Translations under genes and position numbers: made by a program
From: a virus
DNA length: 26,543 nucleotides
IMG/VR virus record: IMGVR_UViG_3300024346_000434
Span: 1 to 26,543 of that record
Direction: 5' to 3' (one strand)
Shown: piece by piece, positions 2,654 to 26,543 of the stretch
Position numbering within the stretch: the stretch's first letter is position 1
How the letters are laid out: the number at the start of each line of letters is the position of its first letter
The notes under the pieces: generated by a model
Databases searched by the model: none
What the model was told of the DNA's origin: nothing
What the model saw: the letters and a program-made list of their open reading frames with translations, nothing else

Positions 2654-3084
2654 CGACTCTTGCTGGGCACCGCGTAAAATCCAATCACCATGAAACACAA
2701 ATCGAAAAAACTCGTGAGCAACAACCCACCGGTCATCTGCACCAGCTCCCAATCTTTGCCACCGAATATCCAGCTGAACACACCCCATCTGGTGCTCTCA
2801 CCCTTGGGCACGATCACATCGTACGTGATGTGTGGATTCATGGCGTAATAGATCATCAAGAAACACAGTGTGAAAGTGATGCTCATGAACAACACACGAC
2901 GTGTCATCTGCACGAACGGATCACTGGCCTGTTTGTTCTGGTTGCACAACAACGCGTCCAGCATCTTGTCATCACGTGCTGCCAACATCATCTGATCTTG
3001 TCGTTTCTGTTCCAACCAGCTGTTTATCAAATTGACGCCCAACTTTATACCGGCGCCGATAATTGTGTTCAATATGGGTCCCAT
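2650..3084 (-). CDS. Holin-like membrane protein
   Basis: The 144-residue protein has a hydrophobic/amphipathic N-terminal helix (residues 1-24), a charged stretch, then two strong membrane segments at about 64-82 and 117-139, joined by a loop with aromatic residues (WGVFSWIFGGKDW). The order N-terminal helix, DPF-x-R motif just before the first strong membrane segment, and a final segment ending in a short basic tail resembles the three-segment holins found in gene transfer agents and marine phages. That family assignment is from memory of the general pattern, not an alignment. Its promoter-like box overlaps the start of the divergent gene at 3102. A holin would permeabilise the inner membrane at lysis; no endolysin is in this window. 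Confidence 0.45.
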   Translation of the reverse strand: MGPILNTIIGAGIKLGVNLINSWLEQKRQDQMMLAARDDKMLDALLCNQNKQASDPFVQMTRRVLFMSITFTLCFLMIYYAMNPHITYDVIVPKGESTRWGVFSWIFGGKDWELVQMTGGLLLTSFFDLCFMVIGFYAVPSKSR

Positions 3085-3096
3085 GTAAATACTTAG
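3085..3096 (-). promoter_or_regulatory. Weak T4-type late promoter box
   Basis: On the minus strand CTAAGTATTTAC directly precedes the ATG at 3084. It differs from the better box GATAAATATTTACG found before the fibre gene at 19088 mainly by a G inside TAAATA. The stretch TAAATACTTA is nearly symmetric, so some signal may also face the divergent gene at 3102. Confidence 0.35.
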
Positions 3097-3101
3097 GCAA
3101 A

Positions 3102-3410
3102 ATGAGGTTCACTCTCACATTACACGACTACTTGAGTCAATACATACACAACATAACCAACGAGGATGACCATTGTCCGGTTTGTTATGGTCGTGAGTTG
3201 CAACATGATTCAAAACATGATGTTCAACACGTGTTGGATTGCTTCAAAGCTGATATGCTGTATCGGGCGTTACGAGAGTACAAATTGACCAAAGGCCACA
3301 ATCCAGATAAAGACACTCTGAGTCTGTTGATAAAGCTGGTTAACAAGCGTGTGAGCGAGCATATGCTCAACTGTTGTGAGCTTCTAGAAACTCAATGTGT
3401 TGTTGATTGA
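3102..3410 (+). CDS. Small zinc-finger-like protein
   Basis: The product from ATG 3102 has 102 residues; an in-frame upstream ATG at 3063 lies inside the divergent membrane gene and is not preferred. A compact cluster of potential metal ligands stands out: C25-P-V-C28, then H35, H39, H43 and C47, which could bind one zinc. The remainder is helical and charged. The gene ends by overlapping the convergent Clp gene by 44 bases. Small zinc-finger proteins in phages often bind nucleic acid or host proteins, but no specific role can be assigned here. Confidence 0.55.
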   Translation: MRFTLTLHDYLSQYIHNITNEDDHCPVCYGRELQHDSKHDVQHVLDCFKADMLYRALREYKLTKGHNPDKDTLSLLIKLVNKRVSEHMLNCCELLETQCVVD

Positions 3411-5823
3411 CGTTGATCATGATCTTGCGATGACCTGGATTGGTGATTATGTGTTCAGCTAGTGGTGTCTCCACATGTTCGGTTATGATTCTGCGGATGG
3501 GTCGAGCCCCATACTCTGGTGTGTCGTGTCTGTCAAGTATCCACTCGATCAACTCTTTGGTGTAAGTCAGTGTCTTCTTACAATTGTTGCGCACGTTGTG
3601 TTTCAGATCTTGCAGCATGTTGTTGCATATGCTGTGCAGATCGCTTGATTGTAGTGGATCAAACACCACCAGCTCGTCCAATCGATTGATGAACTCAGGA
3701 GCATAAGCCTTTTTGAGTTCATCAACAACTGCTGTTCTGATGTCTGTTGATGAGCTAGTTGAGAACCCAACAGATGGTTGTTTGGTAAACTTGTGTGCTC
3801 CTATGTTGCTGGTCATCACTATGATGGTGTTTCTCATGTTAACATCCACACCCTCGCTGTCTGTCAATTGACCATATTCCAGCATTTGCAAGAACAATTG
3901 CAACACATCTGTATGTGCTTTTTCAATCTCATCAAACAACAACACGCTGTACGGATTGAATCGAACAAATTCAGTCAACGCACCACCCTCACCATAACCC
4001 ACATAACCTGGAGGGCTTCCGATCAACTTGCTGGTGCTGTGACTCTCACTGTATTCACTCATGTCAAACTTCTTGAATTTACCGTCATAGAACATTTGCT
4101 CACCTATGATTTTGGCCAGATGTGTTTTGCCCACACCAGTTGGTCCTAGAAACAACAGCGAGCATATAGGTTTGTTAGGATCACACACCCCGGCTTTGTT
4201 TCTCTTGATCGCATCACATATCTTTTTCACGCCATGATCCTGTCCATGTACATGTCGTTTGATGCCTTTCTCTAAATTTTGCAACATGTTAGATTCAGAT
4301 TGCTCTATGTCGTCCACCGGCACACCTGTTCTTGCGGAGATTAATTGCCGGACATGTCGAGTGGTTATTTTCTTCATTTTACTGGTGTCAGTGTCATCAA
4401 CAAGAGTTGTTATTTCTTTTGCCAACAGCTCTTCTGCTTGTCTGTAATCCAATGCCAGATCAAATTTTTTAAGTTCCACGTGCTTTTGTTTGCTCACCAC
4501 AGCTTGTTCGAACGATTTCTTGAGCTGGTCAAACAGCTCCACATCCATGTTTCTGGAGACTTTCACTTTGGCACCCACCTCGTCCAGTATGTCAATCGCT
4601 TTGTCTGGGAAGTTTCTGTCCACCATGTATCTGTCACACAATCTCACAATCTCACTCAACACTTGTGCGGTGTATTTGACATTGTGAAATTTTTCATATT
4701 TGTGCTTGACACCTTTCAATATGTTCAAAGTGTCTTGCTCTGTTGGTTCATCCACTTGTATTGGTTGAAATCTACGCTGCAAGGCACCATCTTCTTCAAA
4801 ATACTCTTTGTACTCTTGTATAGTTGTGGCTCCAATACAACACAGATTACCACGGGCTAGACTTGGTTTCAACATGTTGCTAGCATCCATGCTACCAGTG
4901 GTGCTTCCTGCTCCAACTATCATGTGTATCTCGTCTATAAACAATATGATGTTGTCGTGCTCTTGAACATATGATATCACTTCTTTGAGCCTCTCTTCAA
5001 ATTGACCTCTGTATATAGTACCAGCCACAAGTTGTGCCAGATCCAATGTGTATATTTGTTTGTTCAACAGATTCACTGGTACTTGTTTGCTCACAATACG
5101 TTGAGCCAACAACTCAACGACAGCAGTTTTACCCACTCCAGGTTCTCCTATCAACACAGGATTGCTCTTGGTCCTTCTGCTCAACACTTGTATCATGTCT
5201 TGAACGTTTTCTGTACGACCTATCACCGGATCAAGCTCTCCATTGTATGCTTGCCGGGTCAGATTGCTCGCGTATTTCTCTAGAACACTACTTGACTCCT
5301 CAACTGGTTGTTCGACACTTTGATCTGGTGTGTTTCCGTTGAATGATTGTTTGGCTTTGCGTTTGGTTCTTCTGGCCAACCGGTCGTATATTTTCTCGTA
5401 CAACACATCCGCATCAATGTTTTTCAAGCGAAACATGTTGTTACCACTGCCAGTGTCACTCACCAGTATGCTCATCAATATATGATCCACGTCAACATGT
5501 GTGGATCCGAATTCTGTTGAGATTGAACTGGCGTATGTCAGCATCTTCAACACTCTACCACTCGGCTCGATATTTTTTATTTGTGGCTTTTGTTTACCCT
5601 TGTATTTGTTTAAATTTTTTATTACAAACGACTTGAACAATTCTATATCGACACTACTACCCAACACTCTCACGCTCATGGGCTGGCGATCGCTGTTGAG
5701 TATGCTCAGCAACAAATGTTCTGTCGTTATAAAATCATGATACAGTTCACTAGCGAGCTTTTTAGCTTGTATCATCACCCGCCGACCTCCGGCAGATAGT
5801 TCTGGTATGTTTTTCATTGACAT
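3367..5823 (-). CDS. ClpA/ClpC-type AAA+ unfoldase with two ATPase domains
   Basis: The 818-residue protein is a full Hsp100 unfoldase. Residues 1-150 form a Clp N-domain (TTEHLLLSIL). The first ATPase has Walker A GEPGVGKT (226-233), Walker B ILFIDE (293-298) and a tyrosine pore loop (GTIYRGQFEER). The second has Walker A GPTGVGKT (560-567), Walker B VLLFDE (627-632), pore loop GYVGY (606-610) and sensor-2 GARP (772-775). The middle region (about 425-470) is short, as in ClpA/ClpC and unlike ClpB. VGF at 685-687 sits where ClpC carries its ClpP-docking tripeptide, so it may feed substrates to host ClpP. ATG 5817 (third codon) is an alternative start, because a late-promoter box ends only 3 bases before ATG 5823. 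That box suggests late expression. Substrates are unknown. Confidence 0.9.
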   Translation of the reverse strand: MSMKNIPELSAGGRRVMIQAKKLASELYHDFITTEHLLLSILNSDRQPMSVRVLGSSVDIELFKSFVIKNLNKYKGKQKPQIKNIEPSGRVLKMLTYASSISTEFGSTHVDVDHILMSILVSDTGSGNNMFRLKNIDADVLYEKIYDRLARRTKRKAKQSFNGNTPDQSVEQPVEESSSVLEKYASNLTRQAYNGELDPVIGRTENVQDMIQVLSRRTKSNPVLIGEPGVGKTAVVELLAQRIVSKQVPVNLLNKQIYTLDLAQLVAGTIYRGQFEERLKEVISYVQEHDNIILFIDEIHMIVGAGSTTGSMDASNMLKPSLARGNLCCIGATTIQEYKEYFEEDGALQRRFQPIQVDEPTEQDTLNILKGVKHKYEKFHNVKYTAQVLSEIVRLCDRYMVDRNFPDKAIDILDEVGAKVKVSRNMDVELFDQLKKSFEQAVVSKQKHVELKKFDLALDYRQAEELLAKEITTLVDDTDTSKMKKITTRHVRQLISARTGVPVDDIEQSESNMLQNLEKGIKRHVHGQDHGVKKICDAIKRNKAGVCDPNKPICSLLFLGPTGVGKTHLAKIIGEQMFYDGKFKKFDMSEYSESHSTSKLIGSPPGYVGYGEGGALTEFVRFNPYSVLLFDEIEKAHTDVLQLFLQMLEYGQLTDSEGVDVNMRNTIIVMTSNIGAHKFTKQPSVGFSTSSSTDIRTAVVDELKKAYAPEFINRLDELVVFDPLQSSDLHSICNNMLQDLKHNVRNNCKKTLTYTKELIEWILDRHDTPEYGARPIRRIITEHVETPLAEHIITNPGHRKIMINVNQQHIEFLEAHNS

Positions 5824-5826
5824 AGA

Positions 5827-5834
5827 TATTTATC
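5827..5834 (-). promoter_or_regulatory. T4-type late promoter box for the Clp gene
   Basis: GATAAATA on the minus strand, 3 bases before ATG 5823 and 9 bases before the second in-frame ATG at 5817. The same octamer precedes the fibre gene at 19088. In T4 the late box is TATAAATA at about -10. Confidence 0.5.
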
Positions 5835-5855
5835 TAATAATGTTAAGGTTTAAAG

Positions 5856-5884
5856 TTGATAAGTGCAACCATTTATAATATAAT
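5856..5884 (+). promoter_or_regulatory. Sigma70-like promoter of the DNA-modification block, leaderless geometry
   Basis: TTGATA (5856-5861, 5 of 6 matches to the -35 consensus), 17 bases, then a perfect TATAAT (5879-5884). A second overlapping TATAAT lies at 5874-5879. The ATG at 5891 follows the -10 box by exactly 6 bases, so transcription should start at or next to the start codon. Confidence 0.7.
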
Positions 5885-5890
5885 TAGTGT

Positions 5891-6709
5891 ATGAAGATTA
5901 ATGTATCACACGAGAGTCCGATCAGCATTCTAGAAGAATCGATGGAGTATAATGATTACGGGTACGCATTAGTGCATCTGTTTGAGACACATCCACAGTA
6001 CTACAGATGGTTTAAAGACATGAGAACACAAACAGACACGCCTGTGTTGTTAGACAACAGCATATTCGAGTTGAAGAAGGCTTTTGATGCAGACAAATAC
6101 TATGAATGGGTAGAGAAGCTACAACCCAACTATTATATTGTGCCAGATGTTCTCGAGAGTGGTGTGGACACCATACAGAAATGGAAAGATTGGGTGGTGA
6201 ACTACAATGACAACACAGACGCTTTGAGAATAGGAGTGGTGCAAGGCCGGGATTGGAATGAATTGGTCAAGTGCTACAATTTCATGAAGGATAGAGCCGA
6301 TTACATAGCCATAAGCTTTGATTACAGTTATTATCTGCACACTGGTGTGGTGGAGGATGATTGGGCAGACACCACGTTGATGAAGTTCTGCACTGGCAGA
6401 AAACGATTCATACATCAGTTGATAGATGAAGGTATCTGGTGTTGGGACAAACCACATCATCTGCTGGGTTGTAGTCTGGCGAAGGAATTTAGATACTATG
6501 TTGACAACAATATACACAACATACACAGTGTGGATACAAGCAATCCAATTGTTGCTGGTATCAAAGGAAAGAAATACAATGATGTGTTTGGACTGCCTAA
6601 CAAGCCTAGAACATTGTTAGCTGATTTAATAGATCATCAAGTAACAACACATGAGATGGAATGCATAAAGTACAACACTGACATGTTCAAGAAAATACTA
6701 AACAGGTGA
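5891..6709 (+). CDS. dpdA: TGT-like 7-deazaguanine DNA transglycosylase (DpdA family)
   Basis: The 272-residue protein has the signature order of a TIM-barrel tRNA-guanine transglycosylase: LLDNSIFE (53-60, D55 at the position of the DSGGF-type aspartate), YIVPDVL (82-88), RIGVVQG (113-119, matching the VQG base-recognition motif), HHLLGCS (189-195) and SVDTSNP (213-219, D215 as candidate nucleophile). No zinc-binding cysteine cluster typical of tRNA enzymes is visible. In phages such proteins (DpdA) exchange guanine in DNA for preQ0, preQ1 or related bases after replication. The QueF gene 2.2 kb downstream and the formyltransferase that overlaps this stop support a DNA role. A tRNA substrate, or another TIM-barrel function, is not excluded. 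It is the first gene of its block and has a promoter 6 bases from its ATG. Confidence 0.7.
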   Translation: MKINVSHESPISILEESMEYNDYGYALVHLFETHPQYYRWFKDMRTQTDTPVLLDNSIFELKKAFDADKYYEWVEKLQPNYYIVPDVLESGVDTIQKWKDWVVNYNDNTDALRIGVVQGRDWNELVKCYNFMKDRADYIAISFDYSYYLHTGVVEDDWADTTLMKFCTGRKRFIHQLIDEGIWCWDKPHHLLGCSLAKEFRYYVDNNIHNIHSVDTSNPIVAGIKGKKYNDVFGLPNKPRTLLADLIDHQVTTHEMECIKYNTDMFKKILNR

Positions 6710-7260
6710 ATCTTTTGAACAACAAACGATGGGTGGCATTTTTCAGTCACACCGGCAATGAAATAAACAATCTATCCAGGAAAATTGGACGCTACCCTGA
6801 CAGAGTGATCACTAACCGGTCACCAGACAAAGACATGAATCAAGAGCTGTTGTCATCCACTGACATGGTGTACACCAGAAGTAAACCGGATGCAGAGGAT
6901 TACAGTAGAGTGTTGAAAGATGATGAATGTGTTGTGACGTTGCATGGATGGATGAGAATAGTGCCAAAGAGCATATGTGATGAATATGATATATACAATT
7001 TACATCCTGGGTTGATAACAAAGTACCCACAATTGAAAGGGGCTGATCCACAATCACGTGTAGCTGCAGAGCAAGACGAATCGATATACAAGCATGTTGG
7101 TTGTGTCATACACAGAGTGACACCCGGTGTTGATGAGGGTGAAGTGTTGGCTAGCGTGTCGACATCAAATGTATATTCAGGTGAGAAAATGCTAACAAAA
7201 CAATTACATAACATGGCATTGGATCTGTGGATAGATTTTATATCTCATGAAGATTTTTAA
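6706..7260 (+). CDS. dpdN: PurN-fold formyltransferase, candidate dPreQ1 formyltransferase (DpdN)
   Basis: The 184-residue protein shows the catalytic triad of 10-formyltetrahydrofolate-dependent transferases: N98 and H100 in YNLHPGLI, and D143 in TPGVDEGEV. The preceding GWMRIVPK corresponds to the usual Gly-(F/W)-M-R segment. It is shorter than most PurN proteins (about 200 residues) and its N-terminal loop (FSHTGNEI) departs from the usual glycine-rich form, suggesting another amine acceptor. It starts with GTG, overlapping the DpdA stop as GTGA, so the two are translationally coupled. With QueF in the same block, the free amine of dPreQ1 is the obvious acceptor; DpdN is the name proposed for such a phage enzyme. 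Purine synthesis (true PurN) is the main alternative. Confidence 0.65.
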   Translation: MNLLNNKRWVAFFSHTGNEINNLSRKIGRYPDRVITNRSPDKDMNQELLSSTDMVYTRSKPDAEDYSRVLKDDECVVTLHGWMRIVPKSICDEYDIYNLHPGLITKYPQLKGADPQSRVAAEQDESIYKHVGCVIHRVTPGVDEGEVLASVSTSNVYSGEKMLTKQLHNMALDLWIDFISHEDF

Positions 7261-7786
7261 ATTAAACAAAGAAGATGATATACAAGTTGGTAGTGTTGTT
7301 AGATACAAAGACACTAGCAACAACAAGCGAGTTGGTGAGGTGTGTAGTATTATCGGGACAGGTGAGAATGTGAAGTATGAATTGATCATGTATGACAAGC
7401 GGTTGAAGCCTGTCATGTCCACTGACAGTACATACAAGCGTAAAACAATCAAGAGTGGCAGATGCAAATTGATAGATGTGAACTTCAAATTCAACACCGA
7501 TGAAAGCTTTGAGTTAGGTGATGTTATATGCAAAACATCAGGCTTGACAAAGCGATACGGTGTAATTGTTGGTTTCTTGCATCCAGATGGTTTGAACACA
7601 ACATCTTACGAGCATGGTTACAATGGTGTTTACCTGTTGCAATGTGTAGAGATTAACAAAAGAGGATTGCAACGTAAACGTGACATGATGGGAAATGTAA
7701 AGAGATTCACAGCTATTAAAAACAATGTCAAGTGTTGTGTAATTGATCTATGGAATCGAACAGGTCCCAAGATCATAACAAAATAA
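7247..7786 (+). CDS. Basic beta-rich protein of unknown function in the modification block
   Basis: The 179-residue product overlaps the formyltransferase gene by 14 bases. Residues 12-40 (VGSVVRYKDTSNNKRVGEVC) and 90-110 (LGDVICKTSGLTKRYGVIVG) both read like small SH3/KOW-type barrels with the pattern G-D/S-V-V-x-turn-x-G-V-V, suggesting a duplicated domain. The protein is rich in lysine and arginine, compatible with nucleic-acid binding. No catalytic motif is apparent. Its position between modification enzymes makes an accessory role plausible, but this is inference from location only. Confidence 0.6.
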   Translation: MKIFKLNKEDDIQVGSVVRYKDTSNNKRVGEVCSIIGTGENVKYELIMYDKRLKPVMSTDSTYKRKTIKSGRCKLIDVNFKFNTDESFELGDVICKTSGLTKRYGVIVGFLHPDGLNTTSYEHGYNGVYLLQCVEINKRGLQRKRDMMGNVKRFTAIKNNVKCCVIDLWNRTGPKIITK

Positions 7787-7992
7787 TGGCACCATGGCAC
7801 AAGTTGAATTTCAAAGGCAAATTGATGTTTGTGTCTTGCATATTGAATATAATAGCCGCGGTTGTTATAGCTCGTGAAGGTTCTTGTTTTGCAGTTGTGT
7901 CATGGTTTTTTGCTATGTGGTGCGGAGTTTTAACATTGAATAAACATTATCAATACAGAGATGCAAAGGAAATTAATGACGAAAGACAATAA
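7786..7992 (+). CDS. Small membrane protein with two predicted membrane segments
   Basis: From ATG 7786, which overlaps the previous stop as TAATG, the protein has 68 residues. An in-frame ATG at 7750 lies within the preceding gene and is less likely. Two hydrophobic segments are visible: residues 12-29 (KLMFVSCILNIIAAVVIA) and 36-50 (AVVSWFFAMWCGVLTL), with a charged tail (YRDAKEINDERQ). No family is recognised. It is out of place functionally among nucleotide enzymes and could act in host takeover at the membrane, which is speculation. Confidence 0.55.
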   Translation: MAPWHKLNFKGKLMFVSCILNIIAAVVIAREGSCFAVVSWFFAMWCGVLTLNKHYQYRDAKEINDERQ

Positions 7993-8335
7993 TAGACAAT
8001 TTGAAACCGGTGCTCAACGAGACACAGGTGAAGGTAAACTCCGAATGAGTTTAGTGCCACAACAAGAATTGAAACGTGTGATGAAACGCTATCTAGATGG
8101 TGCTGAAAAATATGGTGAGAACAACTGGATGAAAGGTATGCCATTGAGCGTGTATTATGATTGTGCTCACAGACACCTTGAAGCGTGGTGGAGATGTGAT
8201 GATGACGAAGACCACGCCGCAGCTGTTGTGTGGAACTTGCTATGTGCCATGCATACGGAAAGAAAGGCTCATGATATTGACGTTTTACCTGATGAGAAAA
8301 AAATGGATGATCGTATCAAATATCCAAAAGATTAG
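7976..8335 (+). CDS. dATP/dGTP diphosphohydrolase-family protein (DUF5664, MazG-like)
   Basis: The 119-residue product carries the conserved phage pattern of this all-alpha family: ETGAQRDTGEGKLRMSLVP near the N-terminus, a KYG-x-x-NW motif (EKYGENNWMKG), then HRHLEAW and DEDHAAAVVWNLL, whose acidic and histidine residues would coordinate magnesium as in MazG-type pyrophosphohydrolases. Related enzymes hydrolyse dATP or dGTP to the monophosphate and pyrophosphate. ATG 7976 is chosen because AAAGGAAA lies just upstream with normal spacing; ATG 7961 is possible. It overlaps the membrane-protein gene by 17 bases. Role: shaping the deoxynucleotide pool. The exact substrate cannot be read from sequence. 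Confidence 0.75.
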   Translation: MTKDNNRQFETGAQRDTGEGKLRMSLVPQQELKRVMKRYLDGAEKYGENNWMKGMPLSVYYDCAHRHLEAWWRCDDDEDHAAAVVWNLLCAMHTERKAHDIDVLPDEKKMDDRIKYPKD

Positions 8336-8364
8336 TGGACATTTTACGTTGAATATGGTATAAT
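8336..8364 (+). promoter_or_regulatory. Strong extended -10 sigma70-like promoter, leaderless geometry
   Basis: TGGACA (8336-8341, 5 of 6 matches to the -35 consensus), 17 bases, TATAAT (8359-8364), with the extended -10 TG at 8356-8357. The ATG at 8371 again follows the -10 by exactly 6 bases. The promoter begins on the base after the upstream stop codon. Confidence 0.75.
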
Positions 8365-8370
8365 TTATTT

Positions 8371-8934
8371 ATGTTAGTAAGTTTCACAGGTGCACAGTGT
8401 ACGGGCAAAACCACATTGCTCAAAAAATGTAAGAGTGAAGCCACGTTCGATGGATGGAAATATGTTGATGAGGTCACAAGAAAGGTAAATAGAGGTGGTA
8501 ACAACATAAACGAATCCGGTGATGATACAACTCAATTGTTTATATTGAGTGAACACCTACACAATCATCAAAAACGTGACACCAACTACATGCTGGACAG
8601 ATGTATACTGGATGGTTATGTGTACACCAGGTGGTTGTATTTGAACGGTACAGTGAGTGAATGGGTGTTAAATTATGCTGGTAATTTAATGTCACATCTG
8701 ATAGACAACCTGGATGTTGTATTTTACACACAACCAGAGGATGTGCCTCTGGTTGGTGATGGTGTGAGAAGTGTGAATGTGGAATTTCGACAAGATATTT
8801 TAGATATATATGAAGAACTGTTCGCTAGAAAAAACAGCTGGATGTATAAATTGGTTAGACTGAATGGTACAGTTGAAACAAGAATGAACACAATTTTAAA
8901 TAAAATCAATGAGAAAACAAACATTAGACAATAG
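8371..8934 (+). CDS. P-loop nucleotide kinase (AAA_28/NadR-like)
   Basis: The 187-residue protein begins with a Walker A motif, GAQCTGKTT (residues 7-15), directly after the first beta strand. LDRCILDGYVYTRWLY (75-90) is the DR-x3-D-x-x-Y block found in deoxynucleoside and NadR-type kinases, where the Asp/Arg pair contacts the nucleoside. VFYTQPEDVPLVGDGVR fits the strand and lid region. Such phage kinases phosphorylate nucleosides or nucleotides; the substrate cannot be read here. A salvage role alongside the dATP/dGTP diphosphohydrolase, or action on a modified nucleotide, is possible. It has its own promoter and overlaps queF by 26 bases. Confidence 0.7.
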   Translation: MLVSFTGAQCTGKTTLLKKCKSEATFDGWKYVDEVTRKVNRGGNNINESGDDTTQLFILSEHLHNHQKRDTNYMLDRCILDGYVYTRWLYLNGTVSEWVLNYAGNLMSHLIDNLDVVFYTQPEDVPLVGDGVRSVNVEFRQDILDIYEELFARKNSWMYKLVRLNGTVETRMNTILNKINEKTNIRQ

Positions 8935-9844
8935 TAGAATAACAAAACATTTAGGTCAAACATCTGAGTACAAAGATCAGTACGATTCTTCACTGCTTGT
9001 GAATGAACCAAGGAGCAACAATCGGACGCATCTCAATATACAAGATGATGATTTACCTTTCGTGGGTTATGACACATGGAACGCGTATGAAGTGAGTGCA
9101 CTGACAAACAATGGACTACCTGTCGCTGGTGTTGCGAAAGTGGTGTATCCATGTGACAGCAAGTATATTGTTGAGAGTAAGAGCATTAAACTGTATTTCA
9201 ATTCATACAACATGTACAAGTGTGGAGAAACACCCGAGGATGTGATGAAATTTATTGATGATAGAGCCTCAGAAGATATCTCAAAACTCCTGGAGACAGA
9301 CGTGCAAGTAAAGACATTGCCAGCTGATATCATATCCAAGGGAGATGATGTTTTGTGTAGAGACAGTTATACTACGTTAGAGAATTGGTTTGAACCAGGA
9401 GAACTATCTAGCATGCAATTGGAAACATATAATGAATCTCCAGATTTGTTGGAGGTTGTTGATGATGCAAGCGGAGTGTTCTCTTCAACAGTTAGATGGC
9501 ACAGCAGTTTGTTGAAGAGCAATTGCCGGGTCACAAGTCAACCGGATTGGGGTGATGTTTATATTAGTTATACAGGTCATCATCATGTGAGCCCAGCCAG
9601 CTTGTTGAAGTATATAGTGTCATTTAGAGACGAGTGTCACTTTCATGAAGAGATTTGCGAGACAATATACAAGCGATTGCATGATATTCTGAATCCTAGT
9701 GAGCTGTGTGTCACGTGTCTGTATGCTAGACGTGGAGGTATAGATATCAATCCAGTACGAGCCACATCTGAACGAGCGATTGCTATCGAGTGTCCAGATC
9801 TGATTGATGTCAATGCGTTACACACCAAAACTGCCAAACAATGA
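8909..9844 (+). CDS. queF: NADPH-dependent 7-cyano-7-deazaguanine (preQ0) reductase, bimodular type
   Basis: The 311-residue protein is recognisably QueF of the long, two-module type seen in E. coli (about 280 residues). It shares SEYKDQYDSSLLVNEPRSNN near the start, the IVESKSIKLYFNSYN block with E89, LLKSNC with the covalent catalytic cysteine C206, QPDWG with D213, FRDECHFHEE with H246 and E247, and the closing YARRGGIDINP. All residues expected for thioimide formation and hydride transfer are present, so it should convert preQ0 to preQ1 with two NADPH. The roughly 30 extra residues are mostly in the linker between the modules (about 105-190). Its location with a DpdA-like transglycosylase points to DNA modification rather than host queuosine synthesis. 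It overlaps the kinase gene by 26 bases. Confidence 0.95.
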   Translation: MRKQTLDNSRITKHLGQTSEYKDQYDSSLLVNEPRSNNRTHLNIQDDDLPFVGYDTWNAYEVSALTNNGLPVAGVAKVVYPCDSKYIVESKSIKLYFNSYNMYKCGETPEDVMKFIDDRASEDISKLLETDVQVKTLPADIISKGDDVLCRDSYTTLENWFEPGELSSMQLETYNESPDLLEVVDDASGVFSSTVRWHSSLLKSNCRVTSQPDWGDVYISYTGHHHVSPASLLKYIVSFRDECHFHEEICETIYKRLHDILNPSELCVTCLYARRGGIDINPVRATSERAIAIECPDLIDVNALHTKTAKQ

Positions 9845-10231
9845 GTGAAGGATTTACCGGATAACATAACAGACATTGCACATATTTTACCTTACGCGAG
9901 CAATGTAGGTGCACCTAAAATTGAACCTGATCATAGTTTAGCCGGTTGGAAGCAAGCTGCTGTACATAATGCTAACAAACATTACAAATACAAATTCGAT
10001 GAACTAAAATCTCAATTCGAGCAGTTCGCAGAAGAGTTTAAATGTAATGAACTGATGTACAATGCAGAGATGAGAATCAAACCGGTTATAGGTAAGGTAT
10101 ATCACCTGTATAGTAGAGGCACCGGTACCAACTATGTATCGTTGTTTGCTCCAGATGAGCGGATGGGTGGTCGTGAAGATTTTATAGGTTCATTTAAACT
10201 CAATCACGACAATCGTTGGGAACCAGCGTAA
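9845..10231 (+). CDS. DUF2452 family protein
   Basis: The 128-residue product starts with GTG immediately after the queF stop (TGA-GTG) and shows the features of DUF2452: LPYASNVGAP near the N-terminus, a helical stretch with KFDELKSQFEQFAEEFK, then MRIKPVIGKVYHLYSR and VSLFAPDE. Members occur in marine bacteria and phages and have no established function. The C-terminal half should be a small beta domain. It is the last gene before a strong hairpin, so it probably ends the plus-strand transcript. Because it follows queF without spacing, a role in the same process is conceivable but unproven. Confidence 0.75.
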   Translation: MKDLPDNITDIAHILPYASNVGAPKIEPDHSLAGWKQAAVHNANKHYKYKFDELKSQFEQFAEEFKCNELMYNAEMRIKPVIGKVYHLYSRGTGTNYVSLFAPDERMGGREDFIGSFKLNHDNRWEPA

Positions 10232-15171: not shown

Positions 15172-18100
15172 TATTCATCTGTGACTCCTACGATCAATCC
15201 ATTAACAATGTGTAGGATATGTCCACCAATGTTTATGTCTTGTGTTATTCCGGGTTTGATTACACCGCCATCCAATACAGAGTACCCAGTTGTTGATGTG
15301 TAATTATCAGCAGTCAAACTACCTGTTATTGTAGTATCACCGCTCACTCTAGCATCACCTTCACATATGATATCACCAGACACCTTATGAGTACCGGATG
15401 TGATAATATCACTTTGTGCGGAAATTGACCCATGTACTGTCAAATCACCATGTACATCATCAGATGTTGTAAATATATCGTGTAGTGTTGTGCCACCACT
15501 GGTGATGATACCGGTGGTGCTTATATCACCAGTTATATTGACATCACCCGTGTATGTACCATTGACAGCTGAGCTGTCTCCTGTTATCTCCATATCACCT
15601 GTGAATTTAGAATCACCAGACACATTGAATTGTGTTGTCAATATCTCTGTATTAACACCTATTTTACCGTCTGTACCATCAACAAAGAATGCCGCTTCAC
15701 TGGTTAAATTCACCGATTTAATCGTGAAATCGACTGGCTCGATGTTTGGATTGTTTATTATAACTTGGTTTGGAGTTGATCCCGTTCCGTCTATCGTGAT
15801 GTACTCCTGACTGTTAGTCTCGAGCGTTATTGTATCTTCACTGTATGCGATCCTTGTACCAGTATCTCCTTGGTGTATCAAATCACCAGCGATTGTAACA
15901 TTACCACCTACCACGAGCTCACCACCAACGATATCAAGACTACCAGTCATGGTGTCACCACTCACTGCTACATAGTTCATATGATTGTAATCAGTGTTGT
16001 TAGTACCACTATCACCACTAACAAATGTATATGTATCGTCCCAAGCCCCGGATGAAGATTCAACTTTTGTTATCACTAGGTCTCTTGCTGCACTGATGTT
16101 GCTAACATTTGTGTATGTATCGTCCCATGTCCCGGATGAAGATTCAACTTTTGTTATCACTAGGTCTCTTGCTGCACTGATGTTGCTAACATTTGTGTAT
16201 GTGTCATCCCAGTCAGCAGAAGCTGTTTCAACTTTTGTTATCACTAGGTCTCTTGCTGCACTGATGTTGCTAACATTTGTGTATGTGTTGCTCCAATCAC
16301 CACTCACACCACTGATGCTGTTGATGATCGCATCTATATCAGCAGTCTCTTCCCAGCTGGCACTGTTGCTTTGCACCACGTTAGATGTGTCGCTCCACAT
16401 ATCTTGTTGTCCTTGTGTGGTGTACATGTTGGTGGACCCTGGTTTGATATCATCAGTAGTTAATATCACGTGAGGTCCGGTGTTACCATTGATTGTTTGT
16501 ACTAGATCTGCAGGTAAAGCCAGTTTGTTGTATCCAGAATAAATCTCAGTACCGGCGGTATATTTACCAAAATCTCCAGGAGTAGTATCAACAGCAATTA
16601 AATTATCAAATGTAGTCACTACAATTACTACATCACCCACTTGTATTCCTTCTGTAGGATTCAAGTTGACCACGTCACCAGGATTCTGCACCACATGTAC
16701 TCGTGTGATACTCAGCTCTGGTATTTGATCTGTTAAAAGTTTACCACCAGCATCTAGAGTAGCGTATCCATCACCACTGGTTGTTTGTATATAATTGTAT
16801 ACATTGTCCCATGTGCTGCTTGTGGTGCTCGCGCTTGTGTAAACACTGTTCCAATCGGCACTGGTCTCACTAACACTTGTGTATACATCGTCCCAATCGG
16901 CGCTGGTGTTCTCAACTTTGGTTATCACCGCGTCACGTTGCGCTGACACACTCTCAAAATCACTGTATGTGGTATTCCAATTGGCGCTTGTGGTGCTCAC
17001 ACTTGTGTAAACACTGTTCCAATCAGCACTGGTCTCACTAGCATTTGTGTATACACTGTTCCAATCGGCACTGGTCTCACTAACACTTGTGTAGACACTG
17101 TCCCAATTGGCACTGGTCTCGCTAACATCTGTGTAGACACTGTTCCAATCACCACTCACACCGCTGATGTTGTTTATGATCGCATCTATATCAGCAGTCT
17201 CTTCCCAGCTGGCACTGTTTGTGTTGACTGTTGTTACAACCGTGTCCCAATCTGATGTGTTATGTTCTACAAATTCCAACCCATCATTTGTTGAGTTAAC
17301 TTTCACAAATTTTTCAGCATCAGATCCATAACCAGCCGGAGTGTCATCCATGCTAGCGAAAGTGTTTAGATTGGCACCACCGGTGAATTTTGGATGATGT
17401 GCGTTACCACCATTGTCATCATGTAAAAAGGCTTGATTGCTGTTACCAGTTGCTGTACCAGCGATATCCGTGTTGCCACCAGGGCCACCATATTGCTGTT
17501 GCAAGATTATGCGATTGTTGTTTTGCCCGGCCAATATGGAAATATCACCTTCAGCGTTGGCTTGGTTGATCACATCAACCACAACAGCAGCAATGTTGTT
17601 CATGCTCACTGGACTTGCGCTCAATCCACTGGTACCATATGTGTAATTAGTAGAGTCAATCTTTGTGTTCACACCAGACAGCTCGGCGCTGTCCGCGGTG
17701 AATGTGACGGTTCTGTACGGTACATCTTGATTGTTGTCTGTTATTGACAACGTCAATCCATTCAAAGGTATTTCTGAATCTGATCCATGATCGAACACAA
17801 TCAAAGCTGCAGTTGCTTTCACCACCTCATCTTCCACGGTGCTGGCCACCCACTTGTTTGTTGTTGATTCGTATCTCAATATGGAGTTGTTTTCAATGCC
17901 GGTTGCATCCACATCCTTCAAATCCACCAGCTGGTCAATCTCCCAATCAGAGCTGTTTGATTTGACTGTGGTATATGTGTTGCTCCAATCATCGGAATGC
18001 TCAAACACCGTTGTTTTAGCTGCAGTCCAATCTGCACTGAGTGGGGAGATATTGTTGATGATCTCGTTGATGTCTGCTGTCTCTTCCCAACTGGCACTGT

Positions 18101-24920: not shown

Positions 24921-26543
24921 TTATTCCGGGCGGGAATTGACTAAAATACCATCAATAAATTGTAATATTGTACCACCCACATCAATTTCTTGTGTCAATC
25001 CTTGTTTCCAATCAGCACCAGATAAGCAATAAACCTCACCACTGATCCTGGTGGTACCACTAGCGGATAACCCACTTGTCACACTCAAGCTGGACAATTG
25101 AGCTTCGCCATCTGGTAGATTGACACCACCTATGTTGTTCACAGAAGCATTCCAGCTAGCACTTGTGTTGTTCACACTTGTGTATACATCGTCCCAATCG
25201 GCACTGGTGTTTTCAACTTTGGTTATCACTGCATCCCGATTAGCGTTGACATTCAAATAATCTGCATATGCTGTGTCCCAATCGGCACTGGTGTTTTCAA
25301 CTTTGGTTATCACTGCATCCCGGTTAGCGTTGACATTCAAATAATCTGCATATGATGTGTCCCAGTTGGCACTTGTGTTGTTCACACTTGTGTAAGCACT
25401 GTCCCAATCGGCACTTGTGTTTTCAACTTTGGTTATCACCGCGTCACGATTGGCGCTCACCGCCACGTGGTCCGTGTATACATCATTCACCTTGGGTACA
25501 ACTATGGTTCGATACTCACTCTCATTACTAGTGCTCCAGAAATTAGGATACGCTTCATGATACGCTGACGCTATATCATCGTTGGTTATGTCACCTCCAG
25601 CGTCACCGGTGTATAACGCTCCGGAAACTCCTCTGATTGTTGTGACTCTGTCTCGATCAGCTGATGTCACCTTGACGAATGTTGTGGCCTTGTTGCCTGT
25701 CCATGGACCATCTGGTACATCGTTCAAAATTATATCAGCACTGTGATCGCCTGTGACATCAGCACCGTTTTCAATTCCAGTGATTTTTTCAGTTGAATAA
25801 TTTGCATTGGTTGTGGCAGATGTTGGTATTTTTTTGTATGTGTCACCATCTTCTAACAGATCAAAACCTTTGTCTATCACGACGTTTGAGTAGAACGGCA
25901 CAGTAGCTTTGAGATGAGCTAAATCTGTTGATACGCTGCTCAGTGCTATGCTGGTCACATCACTGTACGGTGCCAGATCATCTAACTTTCTACCATCTTG
26001 TTGCATGTCTCTACCGTTGACAGCACCATGTGTATTCAACGGACCATAAGCACTTATCGTGCCATATATAGTCACGTCATACCCAGGTGTTGCCGCTCCT
26101 AAAATACCCACCTTTTTACCATCAGCCAGATCCAACATGATTTCATCACCGTCGAAAAACTGAGCACATCCGGTGCTTCCGGTCTGTTCCACTTTCAACG
26201 CGACAGTTGTACCCAGGTTCTTTATGCTGAATGAACTGGTCGCGAATGTTGTTGTGTTGAGCTGGGTTGTGGTCCCCTGTACATCCAAGTTACCGATCAC
26301 GGTTAAATCATCTGCAGACACAGATCCTGTCAGCATTGGATCTGCAAACATATGCTCTTTGCTCTCGTTGGTGACGTTTTCTAGACCAACATGATATGGT
26401 TCTGCTGCTAACAACACACTCTCGACTGTGTATTGTCTCTCTCCATGTGGTTCATCAAATTCATAACCCACAAGCATCATACCTGTGGTTGCTGTAGTGT
26501 TCGTTATGCCTGTGAGGTGACCGCTCTCACCTGCTGGGTATAC
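24921..26543 (-). CDS. Tail-fibre protein with 14-residue repeats, 5' part outside window
   Basis: The frame is open to the right edge, adding 21 codons before the first ATG (26480) that read sensibly as fibre sequence (VYPAGESGHLTGITNTTATT), so the gene probably starts outside the window. Visible parts are GNLDVQGTTTQLNTTTFATS, a QFFDGDEIMLDLADGKKVGI segment typical of marine phage fibres, an array of eight 14-residue units, and a C-terminus (TQEIDVGGTILQFIDGILV) clearly related to the end of the long fibre at 15171. The shared repeats and shared end suggest that the two fibres are paralogues that exchange modules. No enzymatic motif is seen. Confidence 0.75.
   Translation of the reverse strand, partial: VYPAGESGHLTGITNTTATTGMMLVGYEFDEPHGERQYTVESVLLAAEPYHVGLENVTNESKEHMFADPMLTGSVSADDLTVIGNLDVQGTTTQLNTTTFATSSFSIKNLGTTVALKVEQTGSTGCAQFFDGDEIMLDLADGKKVGILGAATPGYDVTIYGTISAYGPLNTHGAVNGRDMQQDGRKLDDLAPYSDVTSIALSSVSTDLAHLKATVPFYSNVVIDKGFDLLEDGDTYKKIPTSATTNANYSTEKITGIENGADVTGDHSADIILNDVPDGPWTGNKATTFVKVTSADRDRVTTIRGVSGALYTGDAGGDITNDDIASAYHEAYPNFWSTSNESEYRTIVVPKVNDVYTDHVAVSANRDAVITKVENTSADWDSAYTSVNNTSANWDTSYADYLNVNANRDAVITKVENTSADWDTAYADYLNVNANRDAVITKVENTSADWDDVYTSVNNTSASWNASVNNIGGVNLPDGEAQLSSLSVTSGLSASGTTRISGEVYCLSGADWKQGLTQEIDVGGTILQFIDGILVNSRPE
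25122..25457 (-). repeat. Tandem repeat array (eight 14-residue units, 84-base period)
   Basis: The string GTCCCA recurs at 25191, 25275 and 25359 (84-base steps), then again 42 bases on at 25401. Units are of the NANRDAVITKVENT and SADWDTAYADYLNV types, like those of the gene at 15171. Confidence 0.9.

What the first reader, a model, noticed from the sequence alone, without database searches (positions are those of the whole stretch)
5891..9844. Phage-encoded 7-deazaguanine DNA modification pathway: DpdA-like transglycosylase plus complete QueF
Seen: a TGT-like TIM-barrel protein (VQG motif, D55, D215) and a bimodular QueF with every catalytic residue (E89, C206, D213, H246, E247) lie in one plus-strand block. 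Known: QueF makes preQ1 from preQ0; phage DpdA enzymes insert 7-deazaguanines into DNA and so block restriction. Inferred: this T4-like phage replaces part of its guanine with a preQ1-derived base. The window shows no FolE, QueD, QueE or QueC, so preQ0 would be taken from the host or made by genes elsewhere in the phage.
Basis: partly seen in the sequence, partly recalled or inferred. Interest (0 to 1): 0.85.

Follow-up and report, generated by a model that had tools for sequence, protein, structure and literature searches.

The report
Phage operon replacing guanine in DNA
This stretch of a marine T4-like phage carries a compact set of genes that most likely swaps guanine in the phage's DNA for a formylated 7-deazaguanine that bacterial defences cannot cut; the chemistry belongs to a known kind, but an almost always present kinase beside the swapping enzyme suggests the swap could happen on loose DNA building blocks rather than on finished DNA.

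Summary
5891-6709 encodes a TGT-fold transglycosylase (AlphaFold pLDDT 95.7; best PDB match preQ1-bound TGT, Z 17.8). 8909-9844 encodes a bimodular QueF with every residue named and the NADPH-binding QueF motif. The reading is right in kind but incomplete. The protein's closest relatives in named phages are the 'DpdA' of Flavobacterium phage immuto and CP220 gp056; CP220 DNA is reported to have 100% of its G replaced, so 'part of its guanine' is not supported. The order DpdA-formyltransferase-kinase-QueF recurs in immuto and dozens of uncultured phages, so the likely product is N-formyl-preQ1 in DNA (from memory, the fdPreQ1/DpdA3/DpdN system of Cui et al. 2023; paper not held). In 78 non-redundant loci the kinase lies within 5 kb of DpdA in 74, QueF in 69, the formyltransferase in 52. 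Clusters of DpdA1 (9g, CAjan, Dp-1) and DpdA2 (KVP40) lack the kinase. This leaves open base exchange on free nucleotides. Verdict: new member of a known kind, with one testable mechanistic twist.

The parts
5856..5884 (+). promoter-like site TTGATA-17-TATAAT just upstream of the operon
   Evidence: 11 of 12 consensus positions, one of the two best sites in the region; consensus match only
5891..6709 (+). DpdA-type guanine transglycosylase, 272 aa, TGT fold
   Evidence: phrog_19058 E 6e-48; 43% identity to immuto 'DpdA', 42% to CP220 gp056; model pLDDT 95.7, TGT match Z 17.8; catalytic-type Asp residues 55, 86, 215 invariant
6706..7260 (+). PurN-like N10-formyl-THF-dependent formyltransferase, 184 aa; GTGA overlap with the dpdA stop; candidate preQ1 formyltransferase
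   Evidence: PF00551 E 2e-10, above cut-off; N98-x-H100 and D143 kept; 46% identity to the gene at the same place in immuto
7247..7786 (+). unknown 179-aa protein, found only in the window's close clade
   Evidence: no family match; tblastn conservation in close relatives
7750..7992 (+). small hydrophobic protein, 80 aa, probably membrane-bound (by eye)
   Evidence: ORF and conservation in close relatives; no family match
7961..8335 (+). dATP/dGTP diphosphohydrolase-type protein, 124 aa
   Evidence: PF18909 E 3e-20, above cut-off; phrog_801 E 1.7e-18
8336..8364 (+). promoter-like site TGGACA-17-TATAAT with extended -10, upstream of the kinase
   Evidence: 11 of 12 positions; consensus match only
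8371..8934 (+). P-loop nucleotide or nucleoside kinase ('thymidylate kinase'-like), 187 aa
   Evidence: PF13521 E 1.7e-13, phrog_2107 E 2.6e-22; Walker A GAQCTGKT at residue 7, DRCILD at 76; within 5 kb of DpdA in 74 of 78 loci
8909..9844 (+). bimodular QueF, NADPH-dependent preQ0 reductase, 311 aa

Best explanation
The block is a phage operon for 7-deazaguanine modification of its own DNA. PreQ0, from the host or from phage genes outside this fragment, is reduced by QueF to preQ1; the DpdA-type transglycosylase exchanges guanine for the 7-deazaguanine; the PurN-like enzyme formylates the aminomethyl group, so the expected base is 7-(formylamino)methyl-7-deazaguanine, probably replacing most or all guanine and blocking restriction enzymes. 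Shown here: the genes, their folds or families, kept catalytic residues and conserved gene order. Inferred: substrates, product, extent of replacement and protective role. The base exchange is taken to happen on DNA, as for other DpdA enzymes; the kinase and dGTP diphosphohydrolase would then act as nucleotide-supply helpers.
For: TGT fold with high confidence. QueF with all catalytic residues and the NADPH-binding motif. Formyltransferase with N-x-H-P and the VDEG aspartate kept. Same order DpdA-formyltransferase-kinase-QueF in Flavobacterium phage immuto, which also has FolE, QueD and QueE upstream and a QueC elsewhere, and in dozens of uncultured relatives. Relatives CP220 and CPt10 have 100% of dG replaced by dADG (PMC8306585). 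dPreQ1 was measured in DNA of the QueF-bearing phages Dp-1 and HVTV-1, and 7-deazaguanines protect phage DNA from restriction (PMC6884629). Large relatives carry QueC (13 of 20) and QueD (13 of 20).
Against: No chemistry has been measured for this phage. The formyltransferase's acceptor is unknown; it scores far below the PurN equivalog cut-off, which fits a new substrate but does not identify it. A post-replicative route does not by itself explain why a kinase is the most constant neighbour. The nearest large relative shows no preQ0 biosynthesis genes.
Confidence: 0.6

Rival explanations
1. Nucleotide-level (pre-replicative) replacement: the diphosphohydrolase turns dGTP into dGMP, the small DpdA exchanges the base on the free nucleotide, the kinase phosphorylates the resulting 7-deaza-dGMP, and the phage polymerase incorporates the modified dNTP. 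The formyltransferase, from a family whose classical substrate is a 5'-phosphorylated ribosyl amine, could act on the same nucleotide.
For: Kinase within 5 kb of DpdA in 74 of 78 non-redundant loci, more than QueF (69) or formyltransferase (52). Kinase homologous to the window's beside DpdA in CP220, CC_R7 and immuto, and different P-loop kinase types beside distant DpdA relatives in Bacillus BSTP12, Weizmannia Youna2 and Cellulophaga phiST. A dNTP-pyrophosphohydrolase-type gene in the window clade (PF18909), immuto (PRA-PH/MazG-like) and phiST (MazG); an HD-domain gene in CP220. DNA polymerase gene next to the pair in CC_R7, BSTP12 and Youna2. No kinase in the DpdA1 clusters of 9g, CAjan, Dp-1 or the DpdA2 cluster of KVP40. 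A modified dGTP used by polymerase was proposed for Campylobacter phages (PMC6884629). dGTP to dGMP by MazZ is the established entry step of 2-aminoadenine phages (PMC8342488).
Against: TGT-superfamily enzymes are known to act on polynucleotides; a free-nucleotide TGT is unprecedented as far as I know. From memory, Cui et al. 2023 infer post-replicative insertion. Diphosphohydrolase-type genes were found near DpdA in only about a third of the loci, and two loci, L159 and L122, have DpdA with neither kinase nor diphosphohydrolase detected nearby. Phage kinases often serve general dNTP supply.
Confidence: 0.3
2. The enzymes modify tRNA: QueF and the transglycosylase raise preQ1 or queuosine in host tRNA to help translation during infection.
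For: The fold is TGT and QueF belongs to the queuosine pathway; tRNA boosting was suggested for phages with queuosine genes but no DpdA (PMC6884629).
Against: The TGT family model does not match; the protein has no TGT-like zinc motif by inspection (cysteines only at 128, 167, 184, 194, 258) and is about 100 residues shorter than TGT; its relatives occur in phages with fully substituted DNA.
Confidence: 0.06
3. The P-loop kinase acts on the base in DNA, by analogy with the 5-hydroxymethyl-dU DNA kinases of hypermodified phages (known to me from memory), giving a further derivative.
For: P-loop kinases do activate bases in DNA in other hypermodifying phages (memory, not checked here); no tool result supports it directly.
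Against: An aminomethyl or formylaminomethyl group is a poor phosphate acceptor; the kinase also accompanies DpdA in CP220, whose measured product is the amide dADG.
Confidence: 0.03

Closest known systems
DpdA/QueF gene block of Flavobacterium phage vB_FspM_immuto_2-6A (NC_055915)
   Same: Same order DpdA, PurN-like formyltransferase, thymidylate-kinase-like kinase, QueF; 43-46% identity for DpdA, formyltransferase and QueF, about 31% for the kinase.
   Different: immuto has QueD, QueE and FolE just upstream and a MazG/PRA-PH-type gene instead of the PF18909 diphosphohydrolase; the window has two extra small genes.
Campylobacter phage CP220 gp056-gp057 (Firehammervirus)
   Same: DpdA homologue (42%) directly followed by the related kinase; genome reported 100% dADG for dG (PMC8306585).
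   Different: No QueF or formyltransferase next to DpdA; QueD, QueC and FolE elsewhere in the genome; different end product.
DpdA3/DpdN/fdPreQ1 system of Cui et al. 2023 (NAR, gkad657), from memory; paper not held
   Same: As I recall: a small DpdA subfamily allowing complete replacement, and a formyltransferase making fdPreQ1.
   Different: Reference sequences could not be compared here; that paper, as I recall, infers post-replicative insertion.
DpdA1 cluster of Enterobacteria phage 9g and DpdA2 cluster of Vibrio phage KVP40
   Same: Transglycosylase with 7-deazaguanine genes; KVP40 has QueF right after DpdA2.
   Different: Larger DpdA proteins (317 and about 460 aa), no kinase or formyltransferase in the cluster, partial modification with the 9g genes (PMC6884629).
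MazZ-PurZ-DatZ 2-aminoadenine pathway (cyanophage S-2L)
   Same: A (d)GTP diphosphohydrolase yields dGMP for base replacement at nucleotide level (PMC8342488); the window has a dATP/dGTP diphosphohydrolase-type gene in the operon.
   Different: No PurZ or DatZ seen here; the base-changing enzyme is a transglycosylase.

Membership tests
TGT/DpdA transglycosylase superfamily | TGT-type TIM-barrel fold | tested here: met
   AlphaFold2 pLDDT 95.7; TGT best Foldseek match E 1.5e-8; Z 17.8, rmsd 3.1, 230 residues
TGT/DpdA transglycosylase superfamily | catalytic aspartates conserved | tested here: met
   D55, D86 and D215 invariant in 80 sequences; one-to-one match with TGT D102/D156/D280 is by motif resemblance, and hhalign did not settle it
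tRNA-guanine transglycosylase (Pfam TGT, PF01702) | match to the family model | tested here: not met
   no match in the window
tRNA-guanine transglycosylase | Zn site CxCxxC...H | tested here: not met
   cysteines only at 128, 167, 184, 194, 258; no such motif
DpdA3 subfamily (Cui et al. 2023) | clusters with the published DpdA3 reference sequences | not testable with these tools
   paper not held; 42-43% identity to CP220 and immuto proteins, which I recall as DpdA3 cases
QueF (NADPH-dependent preQ0 reductase) | QueF_N and QueF domains above Pfam cut-offs | tested here: met
   111.4 and 81.9 bits against 25.6 and 27.3
QueF (NADPH-dependent preQ0 reductase) | catalytic residues and QueF (NADPH) motif | tested here: met
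   E89, C206, D213, H246, E247; ESKSIKLY
QueF (NADPH-dependent preQ0 reductase) | NCBIfam equivalog cut-off TIGR03138 | tested here: inconclusive
   248.8 bits against cut-off 293.45, E 7.5e-74: a diverged member
Formyl-THF formyltransferase (PF00551) | domain match above cut-off and N-x-H...D | tested here: met
   41.1 bits against 26.1; NLHP at 98, VDEG at 142
PurN (GAR transformylase) | PurN equivalog cut-off and GAR phosphate loop | tested here: not met
   42.2 bits against 150.1; GSN loop replaced by a TGxE-type loop
DpdN (dPreQ1 formyltransferase) | formylates preQ1 or dPreQ1 | not testable with these tools
   biochemical
AAA_28 P-loop kinase | domain above cut-off, Walker A | tested here: met
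   51.6 bits against 27; GAQCTGKT
dATP/dGTP diphosphohydrolase N-terminal domain (PF18909) | domain above cut-off | tested here: met
   72.4 bits against 27; activity not tested

The most novel reading that the evidence does not exclude
This DpdA family is a transglycosylase that works on free deoxyguanosine nucleotides, not on DNA: diphosphohydrolase, DpdA, formyltransferase and kinase form a pool pathway that makes a formyl-7-deaza-dGTP which the polymerase incorporates, giving complete guanine replacement. It would be the first TGT-fold enzyme acting on mononucleotides and a guanine counterpart of the 2-aminoadenine pathway.
Probability: 0.25. Interest if true: 0.85.

Novelty: new member of a known kind. 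Interest (0 to 1): 0.42.

Why it matters
Hypermodified guanine hides phage DNA from restriction and can change what sequencing and cloning recover. The survey shows that this small-DpdA module is very common in uncultured, mostly marine T4-like phages (hundreds of hits), with the formyltransferase in two thirds of the loci sampled. The constant kinase makes a specific open question testable: is complete guanine replacement done on finished DNA or by feeding the polymerase a modified dGTP?

Tried and rejected
A first AlphaFold job with 11 close relatives failed (pLDDT 55); 80 diverse sequences solved it. Isoelectric point as a sign of DNA binding: not discriminating (this family median 5.4, 9g DpdA1 5.6). 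hhalign of the family against one E. coli TGT gave no useful alignment. A profile search of PDB sequences found nothing. Palindrome counts showed no general depletion and do not discriminate. YhhQ preQ0 transporter: none in 11 records. tRNA genes and Rfam families, including preQ1 riboswitches, in the window: none. Viral scans with single distant queries found nothing. The Cui 2023 and Crippen 2019 papers are not held, so points taken from Cui 2023 are marked as memory. The kinase matches in phiST, BSTP12 and Youna2 are partly circular, since those sequences were in that model; their kinase nature rests.
Full report
What is there. The window is a 26.5 kb fragment of an uncultured T4-like phage: gp23-type capsid protein (Pfam E 4e-93), at most about 33% identical to the best-matching phages in the GenBank phage collection. 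Between a minus-strand clpA-like gene (ends 5823) and the minus-strand capsid genes lies a plus-strand block of overlapping genes, 5891-10231, with strong promoter-like sites at 5856 and 8336. The block reads: DpdA-like (5891-6709), PurN-like formyltransferase (6706-7260), two small unknowns (7247-7786, 7750-7992), dATP/dGTP diphosphohydrolase-type protein (7961-8335), P-loop kinase (8371-8934), QueF (8909-9844), then a DUF2452 protein (9845-10231).

The transglycosylase. Sequence searches alone do not place the 272-aa protein: no Pfam TGT match and no PDB sequence match. It belongs to phrog_19058 and is 42-43% identical to proteins of Campylobacter phage CP220 and Flavobacterium phage immuto; the latter is annotated DpdA. 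With 80 relatives AlphaFold2 gives a model of mean pLDDT 95.7 whose best solved matches are tRNA-guanine transglycosylases, among them preQ1- and preQ0-bound forms, Z 17.8 over 230 residues. Aspartates 55, 86 and 215 are invariant. It lacks the TGT zinc motif by inspection.

QueF. The 311-aa protein has both QueF domains, all catalytic residues and the QueF motif ESKSIKLY. The motif points to a reductase rather than an archaeal QueF-L amidotransferase (knowledge of the family). It falls below the NCBIfam equivalog cut-off, as a diverged phage member would. Published data support this direction: phages Dp-1 and HVTV-1, whose QueF-type proteins had been predicted by HHpred to be QueF-L, carried dPreQ1 (PMC6884629).

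The overlooked formyltransferase. 6706-7260 is a Formyl_trans_N protein. In the 41 homologues aligned, the catalytic N-x-H-P and the VDxG-type aspartate are kept, while the loop that holds the GAR phosphate in PurN (GSN) is replaced by a TGxE-type loop and the protein is shorter (representative rows were inspected). The cofactor side is thus PurN-like and the acceptor side is not. Its closest relative in the phage collection is the gene at the same place in immuto (46%). The simplest reading is a preQ1 formyltransferase, which from memory is what Cui et al. 2023 named DpdN, giving fdPreQ1; that paper was not available.

The overlooked kinase. Across 78 non-redundant loci (DpdA under 90% identical, at least 2.5 kb downstream), the kinase lies within 5 kb of DpdA in 74, QueF in 69, the formyltransferase in 52 and the PF18909 diphosphohydrolase in 21 (one more, L044, has the kinase 5.9 kb away). 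The loci were found through DpdA, so the kinase count is not biased by the search, but most are related T4-like phages. Beyond them, the kinase follows DpdA in CP220, in CC_R7 (then DNA polymerase) and in immuto. In Bacillus phage BSTP12 and Weizmannia phage Youna2 a phrog_761 kinase and a DNA polymerase I flank a distant DpdA relative. In Cellulophaga phage phiST an AAA_18 P-loop protein adjoins the DpdA-like gene, with MazG, FolE, QueE and QueD close by. In the phage collection tblastn with the window's kinase finds only Campylobacter and immuto phages. By contrast the DpdA1 clusters of 9g, CAjan and Dp-1 and the DpdA2 cluster of KVP40 have no such kinase.

What the kinase could mean. CP220 and CPt10 are reported to have 100% of dG replaced by dADG (PMC8306585), against 5-9% of G in cells expressing the 9g genes and traces in nt-1 (PMC6884629). 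In 2019 a modified dGTP used by the polymerase was suggested for Campylobacter phages, which were then thought to lack a DpdA (PMC6884629). A DpdA relative is present there, with a kinase next to it. The nucleotide-level model (dGTP to dGMP, base exchange, rephosphorylation, incorporation) would explain kinase, diphosphohydrolase, polymerase adjacency and completeness together, and resembles the 2-aminoadenine pathway, in which MazZ makes dGMP from dGTP (PMC8342488). It remains an inference: TGT-type enzymes act on polynucleotides, diphosphohydrolase-type genes are found in only a minority of loci, and loci L159 and L122 lack both helpers nearby. I give it about 0.25-0.3.

Source of preQ0. Among 20 relatives' records, 13 carry QueC and 13 QueD; 12 have a partial QueE match; FolE is in 4 of 9 tested. 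The nearest large relative, 146.8 kb (L031/G016, DpdA 67% identical), shows none of the four, and no YhhQ transporter was found. Both host supply and phage genes elsewhere remain open for this phage, because all these records may be fragments.

Verdict. Ordinary in kind: a further, deeply uncultured member of a phage 7-deazaguanine system whose gene order is already visible in immuto.

Noticed in passing
window 3367-5823 (-): Phage-encoded ClpA/ClpB-type AAA+ chaperone (phrog_4871 'ATP-dependent protease', E 3.7e-233), found near the DpdA operon in many relatives, on either strand.
   Followed up: partly
window 16018-17150 and 25191-25389: Tandem repeats of 42 and 84 bases inside two putative virion or fibre proteins on the minus strand, coding repeated NTSADWDxVYT-like peptides.
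   Followed up: no
L031 / G016 (146.8 kb record): Large relative with DpdA, formyltransferase, kinase and QueF but no detectable FolE, QueD, QueE or QueC: possible dependence on host preQ0.
   Followed up: partly
L120, bases 2900-5747; also L122 and L016:6840-7235: Phosphoribosyltransferase genes near DpdA (HPRT-like in L120 and L122, annotated in immuto); they could salvage the guanine released by base exchange.
   Followed up: partly
NC_027997.1 (CP220), about 5422-5937 and 55493-56035: Campylobacter phage CP220 has two places matching the window's kinase, one beside DpdA and one far away.
   Followed up: no
L101, L102, L186: phrog_20335 and the Weizmannia/Bacillus 'hypothetical' or 'NadR'-annotated proteins are distant relatives of this DpdA; some members also match PF20314 (DUF6610) weakly, so DUF6610 may be TGT-like.
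   Followed up: partly
window 7247-7786 and 7750-7992: Two operon proteins without any family match, kept only in the window's close clade.
   Followed up: no
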